From Candidatus Altimarinota bacterium (GTDB lineage Bacteria; Patescibacteriota; Gracilibacteria; BD1-5; UBA2023), in assembly GCA_003488655.1 (NCBI GenBank), contig DNKW01000035.1:1-10371 (forward strand): a stretch of DNA of 10,371 nucleotides, read 5' to 3'. The notes beneath the pieces were generated by a model. It had not been told where the DNA came from and searched no databases. It was given only the letters and a program-made list of their open reading frames with translations. Both the position numbers and the translations under genes were made by a program. Within the stretch, counting starts at the first letter, position 1. The number at the start of each line of letters is the position of its first letter. This document shows positions 4-10,360 of the stretch, piece after piece.

Positions 4-78
4 TGGCTCCCCGAATAGGATTCGAACCTATGACCCAACGGTTAACAGCCGTTTGCTCTACCACTGAGCTACCGAGGA
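4..78 (-). tRNA. tRNA-Asn (anticodon GTT)
   Basis: On the minus strand this stretch folds as a 75-nt tRNA. The acceptor arm TCCTCGG pairs with TCGGGGA (two wobble pairs), the discriminator base is G, and CCA is encoded in the DNA. The D-arm has TAGCTCAGTGGTAGAGC and the T-arm has GGTTCGAATCC. The anticodon stem AACGG/CCGTT encloses a loop with GTT, which reads asparagine codons. It lies behind its own promoter and beyond the terminator of the upstream operon. The tRNA-Gly(UCA) needed to read UGA as glycine is not in this window. Confidence 0.97.
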
Positions 79-958: not shown

Positions 959-1402
959 TTATTTTTTGAGTGTCGCTTTTTCCGTGGGACGAATGAGACC
1001 ATTAATAATAACCTGAATAAACGAGGCGAGTCCCGCAATGGCGAGCAAGAGCACAAAAAGCCATCCGAACGAAAAAAGAGTAAAGAGCGCGAGGAGAAAA
1101 AGCGCCGACCATACCCCCGAACACCACGGACAGATGAGAAGTTCAAAGACGGTTCGACCGAAAGGATGGTCTATAGAGCCAAAATACGCCCGGATAAAAT
1201 TGGTAATCTTATCGTAAGTCAAGAGACGGATAAGACGGAATGTCGCAAGAGAGAGGAGGAAAAAATCGAACGGGGCGATTCGGCGTGGAAGTCATCACTC
1301 AATATGGAGCCGAAAAGCAAGTGCCCCAAACAATAGGAGGAAAATGAGAGTAAAAATCCCATTCCATACATCTTCCGCGGTTTTAAAAAATGGTCGACCC
1401 AT
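959..1402 (-). CDS. DUF1360-like membrane protein
   Basis: A 147-residue protein (ATG to TAA) with two consecutive UGA codons read as Gly36-Gly37. Under the standard code only the C-terminal half would appear intact. Hydrophobic segments at about 15-30, 46-57, 98-110 and 113-134 suggest an integral membrane protein. The motif LLICPWCSGVWSAL (CPWC at 91-94), and the FRLIRLLTYDKIT stretch before it, match my memory of DUF1360 proteins such as Bacillus YngL, whose biochemical role is unknown. Its length fits that family. A TTGCGG/TATAAT promoter lies about 20 bases upstream, and TTCACTCT sits one base before the ATG. The kinase-like gene follows after 25 bases. The family call comes from motif recall, not from a search. 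Confidence 0.85.
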
Positions 1403-2057: not shown

Positions 2058-2084
2058 ATAACGTAATAATATTTGAAGATTTCG

Positions 2085-2118
2085 AAAATAGCTGTCTTAA
2101 ATCAAGACAGCTATTTTT
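2085..2118. terminator. Bidirectional intrinsic terminator
   Basis: A perfect 14-bp stem (AAAATAGCTGTCTT at 2085-2098, matching arm at 2104-2117) encloses a 5-base loop. T-rich sequence follows on the plus strand, and the stem itself ends in T's when read on the minus strand. It lies about 38 bases beyond the stop codon of the 752-residue gene, so it most likely ends that transcript and insulates it from the next promoter. Confidence 0.8.
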
Positions 2119-2155: not shown

Positions 2156-4414
2156 TTAGAGAACTTCTCTTTTTGCTTTTAACATACAATCAAATTCCTT
2201 TTGATTAAAAGTTCCCCCAGGGGTTAGAATTCATTTTTTCCTCAATTGTGCGTCAAATCAGCCTTTTTGATTTACTGTAGTATATAGCCTTTCTTTAAAA
2301 TCAGGAATTGCTGCTTTTGTGCTTTTCGCAGCCATTTTATCTCCCATGTTAAGATCAAATATCTTATCTACCACTCCCAATAAAATAGCCTGTTGTTCTT
2401 CATGGAAACCATTCTGCAGATTAAATTTTGGATATGTTGAATTGCTATCTTGAACAGTAGTAAGAAATTTGCGCATAGACGGAGCTATTGACTTGAGTCC
2501 CATGTCGTAAAAAAAACTGTAGGAATCTATTGTTTTTTTCACCTTTTTTTCAGTCGAGCAAATTTCTTCTTCTCCGTTGATGGATAAGATATACTTACCA
2601 TTTTCTTTTTTTACAAAACAATCCTCATTACCAATAACATCTTTCAAAGGGATATACTTTCCATCTTCATGGAGTGTTGCCAATCTTCCACTTATATCAT
2701 TTTTTTCTGTATGATTTTCATTGACATATTTCTGTTTTTTCTCCATTTCAGGAACAGTAAAGTCCGTCGTTTTTTTCTGCTTCACATCCTCTTTATAGAG
2801 GCTTTCAGCGAAACTGTCGGAATACATTCCGTTTCTCTTCAGTTCTTCCAATTGTTCTCCTGTAATATTCTGTGTTGCCATCACATAATTATCGGCCTTG
2901 TATTCCTCAAATTGAAGATGAGGTTTTAAGTCCCTATATAACTCTGTTGTTGCTAGATTTTTCGCCTCTAAAATCGAGAGTACTTTCTTGAGTACTTTCT
3001 TATCCCCACATATGCTTGCTATACTCACCTCAGAATATCCAATCTGCCTAAGGGTTTCTTTATATGATTTCTCTTTTGAGAGAATATTATCCTTACTTCT
3101 CCCAGCATCAATCGTTCATTTCATTACATTCTCTAGCTTTTGAGGAGTTCAGCTATGATTCATGGTCGCAGCAATCGCCTCACCTGTTGGTCGGTCATAA
3201 AGATGTTTTATATTCTTAATATCCTGTTTATTTTTATCAATCTCTTCTTGTTTATTTATAAACTCCTGGAACCATAAAGGAATTTCCTTCCCGCTTTCTT
3301 TTATATCTTTTATTAATATCTTTTTCTCGTCAGAAGTAATCTCATATATCTTTTTATTTTTTATTCACTCAGGTAAAGTACTTTCTGAAATCTTAAATCA
3401 AAATCATCCGAATGTCTTCCCGATAGTTTTATCTCCGAAGAATTTTTTTTGTTCAGTTTCGAGTTTCTTATTTTTTTTCTCTTTCTCCGAAATTTTCCTT
3501 TTAAAAAATTCTGTAACCATAAAGCCTGTTGGGTTTTTTTCATGAAATTCACGCTCTAACTCCTCAATGAGTTTTTTTACCACATTCTCATAATTCATGG
3601 ACTTCCCTTTTTCATTAAAAAATTCTTTTTTTATTCCGGCCTGTTCTGCTTTATCGAAGATAACGCTTTTAAAAATATGTTCCGTAGCGGATTCAATACC
3701 ACCAACTGTTCCGGAGCGTATCCAGGCGCTCGTTTTTGCCATAAATCCTGAGTTCTTATGAAAAGCATCTCTTATATGTTCAGATCTTTCCATTTTTGCT
3801 CCCCAAAGGACTGAGAGTTCCAATAGTCGCTTAGCTCATCAGCACCTCTGTTCCAAGACCGTTTTATTCAAAAGCCCCTTCGATTTCAAATGAATGAGAT
3901 AATTCTTCATAGCAAGACCATTAATCTCCTCCATAGGAAAGGATTCCGATCGAAGTTGTTTTTCGAATACTTCTATTGATACAAGACCATGTCCATCAGC
4001 ACTATTAAATGTCTGAAGAGTATTTTCGGATATAATTTTTTGCTGAATAGATGTTGCTATATCCGTACTTATATTCACAACCTTACTTTTGGTATATTCT
4101 AATCCTGACTGAAGACTCTCGAGAGCCGTGTTGGATATTGCGAGGGTTTTCTTTCTTTCTCACAAATACGCTTGTTTGATTTCTTGCAAACTCGCGTCGT
4201 GTTTCTGAAAAATCTCTTTGGCTGCATTTGCAAATCGGTTATATTCGACATTGGTAATTTTTCCTTCCAACTTCTTTCCCCAGAGTTTTTGCAAGTCCTT
4301 TTTGAGCATATCCTTAATTTCCACGTCCGTGGTAGAATTATCCTTTATTCCATCCGAACGTATATCAATAGCATCCACCCATTGAGATGCTGTTTGCTTA
4401 GGAATTTCTACCAT
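2156..4414 (-). CDS. Large hypothetical protein (752 residues) with SHOCT-like segments
   Basis: Ten UGA codons read as glycine join several standard-code fragments into one 752-residue protein ending in TAA, with no TAA or TAG inside. No family is recognised. It is charged and mostly helical, with no signal peptide and no clear membrane segment. Four short helix-turn-helix stretches resemble SHOCT domains: 41-70 (LWGKKLEGKITNVEYNRF), 169-201 (HLKSKGLLNKTVLE), 519-546 (LEELKRNGMYSDSFAESLY) and the C-terminal 720-752 (LRKKGIL, then FNQKEFDCMLKAKREVL). A lysine/glutamate-rich stretch (about 300-330) is followed by a glycine- and phenylalanine-rich turn (GGFGF) containing two UGA codons. ATG at 4414 is chosen because the promoter places transcription start near 4442; GTG at 4423 is possible. 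It is divergent from the three-gene operon starting at 4612, whose promoter closely resembles its own. This suggests joint function, but the function is unknown. Confidence 0.85.
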
Positions 4415-4448
4415 ACAAAACACATAAAGAAATATAATTTCGTCTACG

Positions 4449-4483
4449 AGTATAACATATACCCTTTTTTAAAGCAAAAAACC
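4449..4483 (-). promoter_or_regulatory. Promoter of the 752-residue gene (shared element)
   Basis: On the minus strand TTGCTT (complement of 4472-4477) and TATACT (complement of 4449-4454) are 17 bases apart. The start near 4442 leaves a leader of about 27 nt before ATG 4414. Over 35 bases it matches the rightward promoter at 4548-4582 at 25 positions, including the -35 region GGxTTTTTGCTTTAAAA. Confidence 0.72.
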
Positions 4484-4564
4484 AAACATTTTTCAAATAT
4501 ACATTATTACACAAAACTTAAATAGTATGTCAATGCATTATTATATCGGGTTTTTGCTTTAAAA
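4467..4564. repeat. Inverted repeat of the divergent promoters
   Basis: TTTTAAAGCAAAAA (4467-4480) and its exact reverse complement TTTTTGCTTTAAAA (4551-4564) lie 70 bases apart in the intergenic region. Each copy contains the -35 box of the promoter pointing away from the centre. They may also be binding sites for a common regulator. The AT-rich stretch between them contains no gene. Confidence 0.75.
4504..4533 (-). promoter_or_regulatory. Possible second promoter for the 752-residue gene
   Basis: A perfect TTGACA (complement of 4528-4533) is followed after 18 bases by TAATAA (complement of 4504-4509). The spacing is slightly long and the region is AT-rich, so chance is a real possibility. 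Confidence 0.3.
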
Positions 4565-4582
4565 GAGAACAAATGATAAGAT
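4548..4582 (+). promoter_or_regulatory. Promoter of the rightward three-gene operon
   Basis: TTGCTT (4554-4559) and TAAGAT (4577-4582) are separated by 17 bases, within a 35-base element nearly matching the leftward promoter. It overlaps the ATG at 4573 and predicts transcription from about 4589, so that ATG would not be on the transcript. This favours ATG 4612 for the first gene. Confidence 0.68.
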
Positions 4583-4611
4583 ATAAACAATTCTTACTTT
4601 ATCCACACCCT

Positions 4612-4884
4612 ATGTCCCATATAAAACAATATATAGAAAAATCTCTTCTCATCCCTCCAGACAGAAAAGAATGTCTATCGAACGAGGAAGTGCATGGAGC
4701 TATAAAAGACGATGTGCTGTGTTTTATACAAACATACGCTCCCCTGGAACAAGAAATTTTGAGTCAAGTAAACAAAGAGCTCGCGATTCTTAATACACAA
4801 ATTAGAAACTATCTACAAAATAAAGAAACCGAGCTCAGAGAACGGGAAATAAATCAAATGGAACTCGAAATTGCCTATCTTTAG
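4612..4884 (+). CDS. Small helical hypothetical protein, 90 residues
   Basis: This ORF encodes 90 residues and ends in TAG, with no UGA codon. No family is recognised. From about residue 50 on it is strongly helical and probably coiled-coil (LEQEILSQVNKELAILN, then NKETELREREINQMELEIAYL). There is no signal peptide or membrane segment. It is the first gene of a rightward operon, 20 bases before the 1263-residue gene, so a partner or chaperone-like role for the large protein is conceivable but unproven. An in-frame ATG at 4573 would add 13 residues, but it lies between the -35 and -10 boxes of the predicted promoter, so the start at 4612 is preferred. Confidence 0.75.
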   Translation: MSHIKQYIEKSLLIPPDRKECLSNEEVHGAIKDDVLCFIQTYAPLEQEILSQVNKELAILNTQIRNYLQNKETELREREINQMELEIAYL

Positions 4885-4904
4885 ATCCCTATTAAAACAA
4901 AAAT

Positions 4905-7900
4905 ATGCCAAAAGAGCAAAATTCATCCTATGTTATGAATGAAGAAGTCTTTCACTCGGAAAAACAGAGAAATAATCATACCTCTCATGATTCATGAGAA
5001 GTTTTACAATCATTCCAGCATCATGTATCACACCTTGATACGATGATCAAAAAAGTAAATACTCTCGATGAAAATAGTATTAAAAATACGGATACCATCA
5101 GCATTCTCAATACCCTCTTGCAGAAATCCAAACTCTGAGGAAGCAACGGATGAACGGAGAATAAGGCATACTTTAAAAAACACGAAGGCCAGATTGTACT
5201 TGTGCTCAACACGGTTGTTAACGGCAAAAAAATTGATAGTTTCGGGGATATCAATGCAATACTCGCAAATATAGATACGCTTCTCATAAAAAATCCAATC
5301 GATTCAAAAATCTCCCCAGAAAAAAAAGAGATTGCGTCCGGAGAAAAGTTACAGAGAGCCAATAAGCGCCTCGCTCAATACGGGCATCAGATCGAAGAAA
5401 TAAATAATTCTTACCGGGAAAATATCAATGATTGGTTTATGGTACGGGATGCGGTTGTCGAGGCAACATGAGGAGAATCTGGGAAAAAAATATATGGAGA
5501 AAATATACAATCCATCCAAAAAAATATCGAAAAGGATTACAAAGCCCTTTTCGCTTCTTTTGAATGAAAAGAACTCAATGCAGACGATGCTAAAAAACTT
5601 GCTTTTTATAAGAAGCAGACGGGGATCCTTCTCTGAAAAAGATTAGAGGAGGTGCAATCTTTTGCCGGATATCTCATTACAGAGAAAAAACTTGATTCAG
5701 CAAAAAACGCACTCTACGGAGTAAAAGGAATAGGGGTGGGGATAATTGAAGGGTTTACCGAAGGTATAGTTTTCGCTTTTCTTTTTCTAACCAATCCGGA
5801 ATTACGCGATGCGGTATATGTCAGTGTTGAAAATTTTTATGATTATCTCAAAGAGAATTATTCCGATTATGAAAAACTCTGGGGAGATTTTCTCAAAAAA
5901 TTCGAAGAGGGACTTAAGGAAATCCAGGGGCTCCCAGAAAAACAACAGGCGGAAGCGGTTGGAAAAATATTCGGAAATGCCATAGTGGCGATTCTCGGAG
6001 CAAAAGGGATGAATGCCGTCATAAAATCAGGAAAAGCCCGTCTCAAGTTCAAACAACCGGAAACATCGGATCAGAATATAAAATTCAAAGCAACGGGGAA
6101 AACAGAATCCAACAAATCTTTTGCACCAAGAAAACAGCAAAAAAGAGCATCCGAAAAACTAGAGACAAAAACACCGAAAAAAATCGTTACTGCTATTGGG
6201 GAAGTAAAAAATTGGGACGATCTCGAAAGTTTCGTAAACACGATTGATCGTGTACGCTTTAAAGAATGACTTACGGGAAAGAAAATCCAAGAAATCATCA
6301 ATGGAGTACGCGGATGAACGAGAAGTATCAAAGACATTCCTAATTACGGATGAATCCGGGAGGTTGTAGACAAACTCAAAAGAAATGCCGATATTATGCC
6401 AGAGGCTATGGGTATGGAAAAGGTGATGCAGGCAACTGGGAAAATAGTATGAACGGGTATGGAAAAAATCCAAGATACCCTCCCTTTCAAAGAGGCACGA
6501 AAATTTCTCCATAAAAACATCCTTACGGGATATGACTCCATCGATATACATATCACCAAACTTCGAACACTCACAAATGAAACAACCCTACTCTGATTGA
6601 GTGGTCTTGTAAGAATAACCCATTTCAAAAAAATAGAAGAATTAACTATTCAAATCATCGACGATATCAAGACTGTTTCATTCCCCGGGAAAGAATGACT
6701 GTTAAATAAATTAGAAAAACTTAGATCTTCTCTCACGGAAAAGAAAAAGAATACAGAAGAAAAGATAGAACATTACAATAAAGAGTATTTAACAAAGGAG
6801 TGATATCTCACGGAAAAGGAATTTCGCATGCTTCGTTTCGAGGAAGGTTTTGCCATACGGGAAATAGAAAGAAATGGGAAAACATTCTACGAATATCGTG
6901 ATGTAAATGGGAAAAAAGTTTTTGAAGAATACACTTATGCAAGCCATTTTAAGGATGGGCAGGCAGCGGTAACAAAGATAGAAAATGGGAAGGAGGTAAA
7001 TCTAATTATAGACAAGAAATGAAAAGAGTTATCAAAACATACTGATTCCTCATTTACTTCCATTCAACGATTCAAGAATGGTGGACATCGGATATTTAAC
7101 GGGGAAGATTATCAAATAAAATACCCTGATGAACACAAAAGAGATAAGAGTAATTATTATGCTTTTATGACCGAGATTCGTGGTAATATGGTCATTGGAA
7201 TAGATAGAAAAAATACGGTAAAATATATAATTAATCAAGATGGAGAGAGATTTAAAACGCCCTTTCATTTTATCGACGATTTCACCGAAGATGGGGTCGC
7301 AGCAGTAAGAAATAGTCCGAATGGAAAATGGCTCCTCATCGATAAACAAGGAAATGTCCTCAAAAAGGATGGGGGTATTTTGCGGGAAAATATAAACATT
7401 ATCGGCAAAGATAAAAATTGAAATCTTATCGATGGAAATGGGGTATCTCGAACGTCAGCTGAAAAAGAGATTCAAGAAAGAGAGTTTGAAACGGAGGGGT
7501 TTGAGCAAAATCTGCAAGCCATTCATGTACACCAAGAGACTATAAATAACAGAAATAAAGAGGAGGTTGATCCTGAAATGATGGCAAAAAAAAGAAAGGC
7601 AGATTCTATAGTCATTTCAGGAATACTAAAGAAAAACAATATTCAACCACCTGACTCTTTTGTTTTTAGTTATACAGGGAAAGAAGGAATGATTCTCTAT
7701 AACAATCCTCATACGAAAGGAATACAGATAGTGGACCTCAAAAATGGAAGTATATCGAAAGAATCTTTCTCTTATGTACATAGTCCCGATTTCAATAACG
7801 GATTCATACGAGTTTCTCCACTCAATGAGAAGAGTATGTGAGTAATGGATTTTAATGGAAAATATATTATACCCCCAAAGTATCATGATATTCAGATTCT

Positions 7901-8696
7901 TGACGAGAAAAAGAAGCTCTTTGAAGTCTCTGAGATGAGAAAAATTGGAGATAATCTTAATGATGGTACAATTATCGAAAAAAATTTTTCCGATAAGCTT
8001 GAGGAGGGTAATAATATGGTAAAAAGAATAGGACTGATTGATGGGAGAGGAAAAATGGTTATAGAAACAGGTTACACGGAAATAACCCTATTGGATGAAA
8101 AAACAGCACAAGGGTTCATACGATGAGAGAATCTTGAAATTCTCAAGAGATCAAAAAAATATGATACTCATAAAGCTCTTACGGACGTCGCATCGTCTAC
8201 CAATAAAACCGTTGCCATGACCGCCGTATTGATGGCTGAATCCCCTATGGTAATCGAAAATATACGAAAGAGTTCTATCAATATAACCAGAAGCGAAACC
8301 AGTACGGTTATATCGGAACTCAAAAACAATAAATTATCGCTCTCTACGAATAGGATTTCAACGATACGAGATATTCAAACATTTGAAAAGGAAATAGAGA
8401 AGATTGTGCATGAAGAAGTAAATGAGACTGTTCGAGGATATCTGGAGAGAAACGGATTCTCCAAACTCACAAAAGAGGAACGGATAGAAGTTGCAACCCA
8501 TGAAAAGGAAACGAGAAAAAAACTCATCGAAGCAATTCGTCTACAGGTAAAAAGCGAGCAAATACCTTCCAGGAATAGAAAATCCCAAGAAGGAGGAGGT
8601 CTTGTAAATACTCTTGTAAAGAGTCTCCATCCAGAACTTCATAAAGCTCTCGGGGGAGCAGGGGAAATATTGAGAGAGGTGAAAAAAGCAGCTTAA
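4905..8696 (+). CDS. Giant multidomain protein (1263 residues) with WG-type repeats
   Basis: Seventeen UGA codons read as glycine fuse many short standard-code pieces, all in one frame, into a 1263-residue protein ending in TAA. Residues 1-250 are charged and helical with no signal peptide. Residues 272-295 (GVKGIGVGIIEG, then IVFAFLFL) are hydrophobic. Residues 351-375 (AVGKIFGNAIVAILGAKG) resemble the glycine/alanine-rich segments seen before toxin tips in polymorphic toxins, a weak similarity. Residues 376-640 are basic, then helical. Residues about 642-1074 contain diverged WG-type beta repeats, for example DFTEDGVAAV with GKWLLIDKQGNVL (793-817), and SMGVMDFNGKYIIPPKY (around 979). Residues 1075-1263 are helical with a glycine-rich tail. 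WG repeats are generally regarded as binding modules; the role here is unknown. Protein-protein interaction or a toxin-like architecture are possibilities. It is the middle gene of the operon, 18 bases before the next gene. Confidence 0.88.
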
Positions 8697-8714
8697 TTAT
8701 AAATAAAATATTCT

Positions 8715-9545
8715 ATGTCAATACTGGAAAAAATAAAAGAGGCAGTTTCCGCAAGATCAGAGGAAAAACAAGTTCAAAATATTCTCGAAAAAAAACTCAT
8801 CGCCATTGGATGATTTGAGAAAAATGAAATTAAAGTGGTTCGTATCGAACCAAATCTTTTTTCTGTAGGGACAGAGAAAAATATCTCTTTTTATTGCGAT
8901 ATTAAAGGAAAGATTTCCTTCAATATCGGATATATTCGAGAGCAACCATTTTTTGAATCATTCCTCTCTACAGCGGGAGTTTACGAGATAAAAAATAAAA
9001 ATGGAGAATATGAGCTCTTTCGGGTAAACCATGATTCCCTATCACCCGAGAAAAAAGCGAAAGGAGAAAAGGATATTTCTCTCTATTCAAAGGAGTATTT
9101 TTCCATATGGGAAGATGTAAATTTTTATAGAAATAAATTCACCGTCCGATTTTTCCAGAGACAAGATAGGGATAAAAACTATCACCCCCTCAGCGATGCC
9201 AAAATACAGCGGCTTTTTGATGCAAAATCCCTTCGGGTACGCGATTTTGTCTTCTTTTTGGAACACAAACAGATTTCCCAAGAAGCGTATAATACCCACA
9301 TGCAAAAACTCATAGAACGTCTTCCTAATCAGATTGGAGATCTTCGTCTAAATAAAATCGATGATATTGTTACTACCTGAGAAATACGGGATTATTTGAA
9401 AAGAAAAATGATTACCCAAGAGATGTTTGATATACTAAACAGGTCAATTAAATCACGAAATGAGTTACTGGGAATTAAGGATCTTGCAGATGATGAGATC
9501 AGAAAAAAAACATCATCACAGCTCAATGCACTCAAACAAAGATAG
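8715..9545 (+). CDS. Hypothetical protein, 276 residues, with two SHOCT-like segments
   Basis: ATG to TAG, with two UGA codons read as Gly33 and Gly222. No family is recognised. The N-terminus is a charged helix (residues 1-30). Residues about 38-115 are predicted beta-rich (VRIEPNLFSVGTEKNISFY, then KGKISFNIGYI). The C-terminal third is helical and holds two short helix-turn-helix stretches with a central (I/Q)(T/S)QE: VRDFVFFLEHKQISQEAYN (about 175-193) and IRDYLKRKMITQEMFDILN (224-242). These resemble SHOCT domains and segments of the 752-residue protein. There is no signal peptide or membrane segment. It is the last gene of the operon, 18 bases after the giant gene, and meets the sortase gene end to end 15 bases later without an evident strong terminator. 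Confidence 0.85.
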
Positions 9546-9560
9546 GAATTTTGTTCAATT

Positions 9561-10202
9561 CTATGGAACCAGATCCGTAAATACCACAAGTCGTTCGGAG
9601 TAATTTTTCTTGGATTTACTCCAAATCCCCTGACAGGTAATGAGGTTGAGATGAGCTTTCCCATCGTTCGACGCAAAGACCTCCGGCACATCTTCATCCT
9701 GCCCGTATATCCGAGATTCGCGTACTACGAAGGAGATTACCACTCCTTTTTCATCTCGGACACTGAGCTTATCTCCTTTTCGGAGGCGATGGAGATTATT
9801 AAAGGCTCCCGGTTTCTTTTTGATAAAGCCGAAATGTCCGTCAATAACCGCACTTCCTCTATCCCCCGGTCGGGGACCGAGCTCGAACCAGGCGGTATTT
9901 ATGAAGTTTTTTGGTACCTCCATCGCTCCCTGGGAAGTCAGTCCTACATGCTCAATAGATATATTTACTCGAATTTTTGGAATCATGAGTCGAGTAGGAA
10001 TTCCATGGGAGGATAGTAAATCTTTGGTCAACCCAGTAGACTCATAGCGGATATCATGAGGAGATGAACTCCTATCGATAGATGGGATCGATCCGGCATC
10101 GGAGAGATTAAAAGACACGGAGAAAAGAGCTGTCGCGCCTAAAATAATCCCGACAATACCCGCGACAAACGATACCCCTTTTAATGAGACTTTTAATAGC
10201 AT
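9561..10202 (-). CDS. Membrane-anchored sortase
   Basis: A 213-residue cysteine transpeptidase of the sortase superfamily. Such enzymes cleave a sorting signal on a secreted protein and link it to another surface component. One N-terminal membrane segment (about 9-31) would anchor it facing outward. The catalytic set is visible: His123 in IDGHFG, Cys190 in LITCQG and Arg204 in SERLVVF. The stretch LMIPKIRVNISIEHVGL (72-88) is the usual start of the sortase barrel. The class is uncertain; the spacing and GDRGSAVIDGH look closest to class D/E/F-like enzymes. It has 20 glycines and no UGA codon, unlike the cassette genes. The reading frame stays open to 10325, but that part overlaps the small membrane gene in another frame. 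ATG 10202 has TTCACTCT two bases upstream. Substrates are not seen in this window. Confidence 0.93.
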   Translation of the reverse strand: MLLKVSLKGVSFVAGIVGIILGATALFSVSFNLSDAGSIPSIDRSSSPHDIRYESTGLTKDLLSSHGIPTRLMIPKIRVNISIEHVGLTSQGAMEVPKNFINTAWFELGPRPGDRGSAVIDGHFGFIKKKPGAFNNLHRLRKGDKLSVRDEKGVVISFVVRESRIYGQDEDVPEVFASNDGKAHLNLITCQGIWSKSKKNYSERLVVFTDLVP

Positions 10203-10204
10203 AG

Positions 10205-10212
10205 AGAGTGAA
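10205..10212 (-). promoter_or_regulatory. Possible non-SD start signal of the sortase gene
   Basis: TTCACTCT lies two bases before ATG 10202, within the 17-base gap after the previous stop codon. The same octamer precedes ATG 1402 and ATG 10360. It helps decide between this start and upstream in-frame codons. Confidence 0.4.
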
Positions 10213-10219
10213 GAAATTT

Positions 10220-10360
10220 TTATTTTCCTCGGATAATTCGGGTGAGGATTACAATGATGGCGATGACGAGGAGAAGATGAATAAAACCACTTACCACATG
10301 AAAACCGATGAATCCGACGAGCCAAAGGGCGATAAGTATAATCCCGATAGTAAGAAGCAT
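10220..10360 (-). CDS. Small lmo0937/DUF5670-like membrane protein, 46 residues
   Basis: A short ORF, ATG to TAA, encoding 46 residues: MLLTIGIILIALWLVGFIGF, a short polar turn HVVSGFIH, a second hydrophobic helix (LLLVIAIIVIL) and a basic end (TRIIRGK). Two helices around a short turn, length under 60, the LIALWLVG start and the GFIHLLLVIAI second helix match the lmo0937 (DUF5670) family as I recall it. Those proteins are small membrane proteins of unknown role. It lies 17 bases upstream of the sortase gene on the same strand, so the two are probably co-transcribed. It uses no UGA codon. Its promoter would lie beyond the window. Confidence 0.85.
   Translation of the reverse strand: MLLTIGIILIALWLVGFIGFHVVSGFIHLLLVIAIIVILTRIIRGK

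What the first reader, a model, noticed from the sequence alone, without database searches (positions are those of the whole stretch)
2156..9545. Divergent four-gene cassette of unknown function
A 752-residue gene on one side and a 90-, 1263- and 276-residue operon on the other share a divergent control region. None of the four is recognised beyond repeats. Tight spacing (20 and 18 bases), matched promoters and shared short motifs suggest one functional unit, perhaps involved in cell-cell interaction or a large surface or cytoplasmic assembly. This is the best candidate here for an undescribed system.
Basis: inference. Interest (0 to 1): 0.75.

Follow-up and report, generated by a model that had tools for sequence, protein, structure and literature searches.

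The report
Modular four-gene unit in Gracilibacteria
Four neighbouring genes in an uncultured parasite-like bacterium form one conserved, jointly controlled unit, and its last gene belongs to a lineage-specific family found right behind lipase-like and other large proteins, which suggests a helper protein for exported or assembled proteins, but nobody has tested what it does.

Summary
Read with code 25, the window holds g1 (752 aa, -) diverging from g2 (90 aa), g3 (1263 aa) and g4 (276 aa), with gaps of 20 and 18 bases.

The unit is real. A rare 13-base element stands in inverted copies before g1 and g2. It recurs there in three related genomes (one copy altered in one), and before g2 in distant G397, where all four genes lie together at 23-26% identity, g1 moved to the operon's end.

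The main new result is g4, an unnamed family in 14 of 77 genomes of the order. All 17 complete copies with upstream sequence lie within -28 to +24 bases of a same-strand gene: WG beta-propeller (4), class-3-lipase-like (7, one split) or large unknown proteins (6). One C-terminal module is shared by three otherwise different client bodies.

g1 is mosaic: 89-97% identical to a relative over residues 1-560, then 34-44%.

Best reading: g4 is an adaptor or chaperone for a modular class of proteins lacking Sec-like signals, possibly exported at host contact. Function and export are inferred; g4 is dispensable (remnant in G003, absent in G002).

The parts
2156..4414 (-). g1, 752-aa mosaic protein of a Gracilibacteria family; 10 in-frame TGA
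2156..2734 (-). g1 C-terminal exchangeable module (residues 561-752): 34-44% to P0006 while residues 1-560 are 89-97%
2735..4414 (-). g1 N-terminal part (residues 1-560); stretches of it, mostly between residues 75 and 310, resemble parts of other proteins of the order
4449..4454 (-). -10-like hexamer TATACT of g1, 17 bases from TTGCTT
   Evidence: sequence; alignment
4468..4480 (-). promoter element TTTTTGCTTTAAA, copy facing g1 (altered at two bases in G003)
4551..4563 (+). promoter element TTTTTGCTTTAAA, copy facing g2; an equivalent lies before g2 in G397
4577..4582 (+). -10-like hexamer TAAGAT of g2, 17 bases from TTGCTT
   Evidence: sequence; alignment
4612..4884 (+). g2, 90-aa small protein, looks helical by eye; homologous to G397's 96-aa g2 (hhalign E 2e-5)
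4905..8696 (+). g3, 1263-aa large protein without Sec-like N terminus; 17 in-frame TGA
5322..6074 (+). g3 core region (about residues 140-390, one borderline hydrophobic stretch near 275, ending LPxxQQAEAxGKIxGN), shared with large proteins that carry PG_binding_1 or other ends
6795..8084 (+). g3 WG-repeat region, predicted beta-propeller (residues about 631-885; further strands about 920-1060)
8178..8693 (+). g3 C-terminal region; relates to G397 g3 C terminus (E 3.1e-4), which relates to the C-terminal module of six other g4 clients (E 1.6e-7)
8715..9545 (+). g4, 276-aa accessory protein family, confident predicted fold (pLDDT 87) without clear PDB match

Best explanation
The four genes are one co-regulated unit of a modular system that, as far as searched, is confined to one order of Gracilibacteria. 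g3 is the large working protein: a conserved front half, a WG beta-propeller for binding, and a C-terminal module. g4 is a dedicated adaptor or chaperone made next to its client; the same family stands behind WG-propeller proteins, class-3-lipase-like proteins and large proteins of unknown family, so it is a general partner rather than a toxin-specific antidote. g2 is a small partner made just before g3. g1 is a second large, mosaic protein under the same unusual promoter element, and its C-terminal module is exchanged between strains. Most likely the clients act outside the cell or at the host contact after export without a Sec signal, with g4 (and g2) keeping them soluble and targeted. SHOWN: co-location, shared element, tight g4-client pairing, modularity, no Sec-like N terminus by simple hydropathy. 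INFERRED: binding of g4 to client, role of g2, co-transcription, export, host contact, any toxicity.
For: All four genes lie together in window, G001 and G397, where identities to the window are 26% for g1, 24% for g2, 25% for g3 and 23% for g4. The element is rare genome-wide (13 pattern matches in 4 genomes against 1 for the reversed control) and 7 of the 13 stand at this unit. g4 pairing: 17 of 17 complete copies with upstream sequence, -28 to +24 bases, three client types. One C-terminal module on three different bodies (WG protein of G397; L078/L083/L091/L120; L087/L118): of 2913 ORFs the profile matches only those seven at E<=0.01, the G397 protein at 1.6e-7 without being in the profile, and leave-out profiles mostly confirm the links. 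Client C-tails are more hydrophilic than other genes of the loci (mean GRAVY -1.49, n=17, against -0.43, n=104). Client N termini are not signal-peptide-like: highest 15-residue mean hydropathy in the first 45 residues 1.18. 7 of 7 lipase-type clients keep GHSLGG. g1 mosaicism.
Against: No experiment and no predicted complex. g4 has no match in G002 and is a remnant in G003, where g1-g2-g3 persist. Client C-tails are not more positively charged than controls (P 0.61). The C-terminal module was not found in lipase clients, not in the WG client of G394 (L035), and is only weakly supported for the window's own g3. Other small upstream genes could not be shown to be homologous to g2. g3-core proteins with PG_binding_1 have no g4 match beside them in the stretches fetched. 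No secretion apparatus was seen beside the locus; TraG/VirB4-type ATPase hits occur in 74 of 77 genomes, so they do not discriminate. Relatives within each client type are not independent (tree).
Confidence: 0.5

Rival explanations
1. Cytoplasmic assembly: g3 is an intracellular scaffold (beta-propeller) and g4/g2 are assembly factors; nothing is exported.
For: No Sec-like signal, predicted propeller, a DnaJ domain in two g3-core relatives, below cut-off in one.
Against: g4 also stands behind lipase-like proteins, and five g3-core relatives carry PG_binding_1, which fits wall contact; g1 exchanges modules, unusual for a housekeeping scaffold.
Confidence: 0.27
2. Toxin-immunity: g3 or lipases are toxins and g4 the antidote, or g1 is the toxin.
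For: Tight toxin-antidote-like order; lipase-like, Fic and deaminase genes at some g4 loci.
Against: One g4 family behind three client types; g4 lost while g3 is kept at 81% identity in G003; no variable gene follows the variable end of g1, and the next gene (1584-2057) is 85% and 93% identical in G002 and G003.
Confidence: 0.12
3. Anti-phage defence or decayed mobile element.
For: Mosaic g1; large unknown proteins; patchy g4.
Against: PADLOC and PHROGs give nothing of note; no related locus in viral contigs with the patterns drawn from g3; same three upstream genes in G003.
Confidence: 0.06
4. No unit: chance neighbours.
For: Modules of g1, g3 and g4 also occur apart.
Against: Conserved element and four-gene co-location in distant G397.
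Confidence: 0.03

Closest known systems
T7SSb LXG effectors with small helical targeting factors (Lap1/Lap2; PMC9600955, abstract and section list read)
   Same: Small partner gene beside a large modular protein that has a helper for export; no Sec signal.
   Different: No LXG, WXG100 or DUF3130/3958 hit; no EssC above cut-off in 77 genomes; here one downstream family is constant across clients.
T6SS effector adaptors (DUF4123/Tap, Eag), recalled; only a search listing seen
   Same: One adaptor family encoded beside varied effectors, lipases among them.
   Different: g4 has no Pfam match and no clear fold match; no T6SS search was run.
WG repeat proteins (PF14903)
   Same: g3 passes the Pfam cut-off.
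   Different: The repeats are only a part of g3; no single function is tied to the repeat (recalled).
Patescibacteria type IV secretion (PMC12102498, passages read)
   Same: A Sec-independent route exists in these bacteria.
   Different: No link from this locus to it was found.
Gracilibacteria hypervariable repeat gene (PMC6851277, passages read)
   Same: A diversifying protein in the lineage.
   Different: That gene varies in PTD repeats, almost only by synonymous changes; g1 varies by exchange of a C-terminal module.

Membership tests
WG_beta_rep (PF14903) protein | WG repeats above Pfam gathering score | tested here: met
   g3 35.4 bits, cut-off 25.6
T7SSb LXG effector operon | N-terminal LXG domain in the large protein | tested here: not met
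   no LXG hit at E<=1 for g3 nor at E<=0.05 for five of the six large unknown clients (L118 not scanned)
T7SSb LXG effector operon | WXG100-like, DUF3130 or DUF3958 small partner | tested here: not met
   g2 has 0 Pfam families at E<=1; its structure was not predicted
T7SSb LXG effector operon | EssC ATPase in the genome | tested here: not met
   TIGR03928 over cut-off in 0 of 77 genomes; 64 have sub-cut-off hits, nearly all to one stretch of about 200 positions (FtsK-like, recalled); genome completeness is not told
T6SS effector adaptor (DUF4123, Eag) | adaptor domain in g4 | tested here: not met
   0 Pfam families at E<=1
T6SS effector adaptor (DUF4123, Eag) | adaptor fold | tested here: inconclusive
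T6SS effector adaptor (DUF4123, Eag) | T6SS apparatus present | not tested
   no search for T6SS genes was run
Toxin-immunity pair | antidote specific to one toxin family | tested here: not met
   g4 behind three client types
Toxin-immunity pair | toxicity and neutralisation | not testable with these tools
   needs expression
Type IV secretion substrate | hydrophilic, positively charged C-terminal tail (recalled) | tested here: inconclusive
   hydrophilic yes, charge not above controls

The most novel reading that the evidence does not exclude
g4 is the universal adaptor of an undescribed, Sec-independent delivery route of Gracilibacteria, which loads interchangeable payloads (lipases, beta-propeller proteins and large proteins of unknown family) for use against or on the host cell; g1 is a co-regulated, rapidly exchanged specificity factor.
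Probability: 0.3. Interest if true: 0.85.

Novelty: new variant of a known kind. Interest (0 to 1): 0.6.

Why it matters
How Gracilibacteria act on their presumed hosts is largely unknown. A lineage-specific accessory family that marks its client genes by position gives a direct way to list candidate exported or host-acting proteins in these genomes, and a compact test (does g4 bind its client?). No description of the g4 family or of this operon showed in the listings of five searches of the paper library; that library lacks most subscription journals, and only passages of four of the listed papers were read.
Full report
WHAT IS THERE. Under code 11 g1, g3 and g4 fall into short pieces. Of the 29 in-frame TGA, 11 align with a GGN glycine codon in at least one relative; three relatives were used for g3, one each for g1 and g4. 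Pfam recognises only WG repeats in g3, 35.4 bits against a cut-off of 25.6. NCBIfam, PHROGs and PADLOC give nothing of note.

RELATIVES. Protein searches listed 6 proteins for g1, 7 for g3 and 20 for a g4 profile, the window's own included. Five of these bear a readable name, 'hypothetical protein' each time, of Gracilibacteria (four) or Patescibacteria (one). One scan of genome contigs found three loci, all Gracilibacteria MAGs: L001 (STA_21, G001), L002 (CG12, G002) and L003 (STA_89, G003). In all three g1, g2 and g3 keep order and orientation; g4 follows g3 in L001 only. In G003 a remnant of g4's front end is left (69% over residues 2-27), and G002 has no g4 match (stretch seen). g3 and g2 of G003 are 81% and 82% identical to the window's; g1 gave a BLASTP match only over its last 187 residues (44%).

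DISTANT UNIT. In genome G397 (locus L038) lie a 96-aa g2, a 1521-aa g3 with WG repeats, a 278-aa g4 and, convergent at the operon's end, a 933-aa protein matching the g1 profile over positions 327-738 (E 4.4e-5 in ORFs of 23 loci). The order-wide profile search did not list that g1 match. Identities to the window are 26% (g1, 183 of 710 aligned), 24% (g2), 25% (g3) and 23% (g4). The two g2 align by profile at E 2e-5, with reversed-sequence controls at 0.05 or worse. A second distant genome, G394 (L035), has g3 and g4 but no g1 match.

CONTROL REGION. TTTTTGCTTTAAA occurs exactly at 4551-4563(+) and 4468-4480(-). With up to 1 mismatch the window has 3 matches, mean 0.17 in shuffles, and 0 of 200 shuffles reach 3. 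Both copies are conserved in L001-L003, except that the copy facing g1 in L003 reads TTTTTGCTTTGGA. In the window's two copies TTGCTT stands 17 bases from a -10-like hexamer (sequence). A wider pattern, TTTTTGCTTTNNAN{8,16}TGNTA, was scanned in four whole genomes: 13 matches, against 1 for the pattern read backwards. Six of the 13 are the two divergent copies in G001, G002 and G003, and one lies directly upstream of g2 in G397. Of the other six, three stand directly before a gene: a 937-aa and 263-aa gene pair in G001, a 1195-aa gene in G397 and a 440-aa gene in G002; two lie about 390 bases before large genes, of which one is an SLH-domain protein and the other similar by eye; one lies inside a 172-aa reading in G397. 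Generic sigma-70 scanning finds no promoter in the region, so what binds the element is unknown.

g4 IS A FAMILY WITH A FIXED POSITION. Profile search of the order found g4 in 14 of 77 genomes (24 matches, fragments included), and in the phylum sample only in G003 and one weak, short match, that is 2 of 379. Completeness of these genomes is not told. I examined 21 copies, the window's included, for the upstream gene; the fragments in L086 (two) and L122 were left out before the count. Three of the 21 (L084, L088, L089) end at a contig edge, and L085 looks decayed. The other 17 all have a same-strand gene ending between 28 bases inside and 24 bases before g4: four WG proteins (window, L001, L038, L035), six proteins of unknown family of 923-1038 aa (L078, L083, L087, L091, L118, L120) and seven lipase-type proteins (L079, L080, L081, L082, L117, L119, L121; 384-593 aa, that of L080 split in two ORFs, the nearer 179 aa). 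Pfam Lipase_3 or Mbeg1-like passes its cut-off in four of these seven (L082, L117, L119, L121) and falls short in three; all seven keep GHSLGG. So one accessory family stands behind unrelated clients.

SHARED END OF CLIENTS. The six unknown-family clients have two bodies: L078, L083, L091 and L120 match one another over much of their length (L091-L083 only at E 1.4e-4), while L087 and L118 match each other throughout and match L091 and L120 only at the last 140-165 residues. A profile of the last 190 residues of the six, run on 2913 ORFs, finds one further protein at E<=0.01, the WG client of G397 (E 1.6e-7). Leave-out profiles: L087+L118 find L091 (1.3e-14) and L120 (4.4e-12); L078+L083 find the G397 protein (1.2e-7) and L091 (2.9e-5); L087, L118, L091 and L120 together find no further protein. 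The window's g3 end, with its three orthologues, finds the G397 protein at E 3.1e-4. Direct comparison of the window group with the six is weak (hhalign probability 23%), and L035 and the lipase clients show no link. Client tails (last 25 residues, 17 clients) are more hydrophilic than those of 104 other genes of the same loci (P 1.4e-6), but not more positively charged (P 0.61); related clients are counted separately, so the P value is optimistic.

SMALL UPSTREAM GENE. Readings of about 90-116 aa lie directly before the large gene in the window, L001-L003, L038, L035, L078, L087, L091, L120, L045 and L039, with longer readings in L118 (144 aa) and L083 (175 aa). The same scan lists readings before L041, L042, L046, L081 and L121, which I took for chance by their look and left out, none before L036, L040 and L117, and other genes before L119 and L079. 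Beyond window-G397 and the close relatives within each group, homology was not shown, so this is a similarity of position and size.

g1 IS MOSAIC. Against P0006, window g1 is 97, 96, 93 and 89% identical in four successive stretches up to residue 560, then 44 and 34% (G/W pairs skipped, since one source reads TGA as W). The end of P0006 instead matches G003's g1 at 66 and 73%, while their fronts match at only 15-28%. This looks like exchange of a C-terminal module. The gene after that end (1584-2057) is 85% and 93% identical in G002 and G003, so no matching antidote is seen.

WIDER FAMILY OF g3 AND g1. g3, mostly its core (about residues 140-390), matches in 14 of 77 genomes at E<=0.01, many of the matches weak and partial. 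Five of the recovered proteins carry PG_binding_1 near the front (L036, L040, L041, L042, one of two in L046) and two a DnaJ domain, below cut-off in one; none of these loci gave a g4 match in the stretches fetched. g1-like stretches occur in 10 of 77 genomes at E<=0.001, most of them partial. One L086 protein seems to join a g1-like front to an end like that of a g3-core protein (L039); this was seen by eye, not scored.

MECHANISM. I read g4 as an adaptor or chaperone, because one conserved partner stands behind unrelated clients in near-coupled gene pairs, and g3 as its client. Export is suggested by lipase-like clients, a PG-binding front in g3-core relatives and a LysM neighbour at one g4 locus, by the lack of Sec-like fronts, and by the host-dependent life proposed for the group (PMC11452946, PMC6851277; passages read), but no apparatus is linked to the locus. 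T7SS EssC is above cut-off in 0 of 77 genomes; TraG/VirB4-type ATPase hits occur in 74 of 77 and so do not discriminate. That g4 can be lost while g1-g2-g3 stay means it is not essential, or is replaced in trans: G003 keeps another complete g4 behind a lipase-type gene, but G002 has none found.

NOVELTY. The genes are unnamed families. The logic of client plus shared helper is known from other secretion systems; the parts are not. I therefore call it a new variant of a known kind, with the bolder reading (a new delivery route) kept as the novel case.

Noticed in passing
window 9561-10325 (-): Sortase-domain protein (PF04203, above cut-off; best NCBIfam hit class F, below its cut-off) directly behind g4, convergent; no homologue in L001-L003 in the blastp.
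   Followed up: partly
window 959-1402 (-): DUF1360 protein (PF07098, above cut-off); it, the 1584-2057 gene and the gene within 238-1146 have homologues beside the unit in G003.
   Followed up: partly
window 4-78 (-): tRNA-Asn gene.
   Followed up: no
window 2084-2118: Terminator-like hairpin of 15 pairs after g1.
   Followed up: no
L085:4408-7311: Protein with deaminase, Fic and methyltransferase domains near a decayed g4; a deaminase-Fic protein in L088 and Fic proteins in L082 and L119 also lie at g4 loci.
   Followed up: partly
L078:994-3498: Large pseudopilin-like protein (N_methyl and FecR domains) near g4; similar C-terminal ends seen by eye at L085, L088 and L119.
   Followed up: no
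L085:8152-12654: 1500-aa reading with a LysM domain on the strand opposite the decayed g4, overlapping it at its front.
   Followed up: no
L137:5238-8871, L136:2389-5976, L140:2435-3757: Genes of unknown family directly preceded by the same promoter element, possible further members of the regulon; the L140 one was not scanned against Pfam.
   Followed up: partly
L138 site 2929, L139 site 3391: A variant of the element lies about 390 bases upstream of large genes, an SLH-domain protein in L138 and a similar one by eye in L139.
   Followed up: no
L038:16192-16437: 81-aa protein with signal-like front and hydrophobic end, resembling a filamentous-phage coat protein by eye; no Pfam hit.
   Followed up: no
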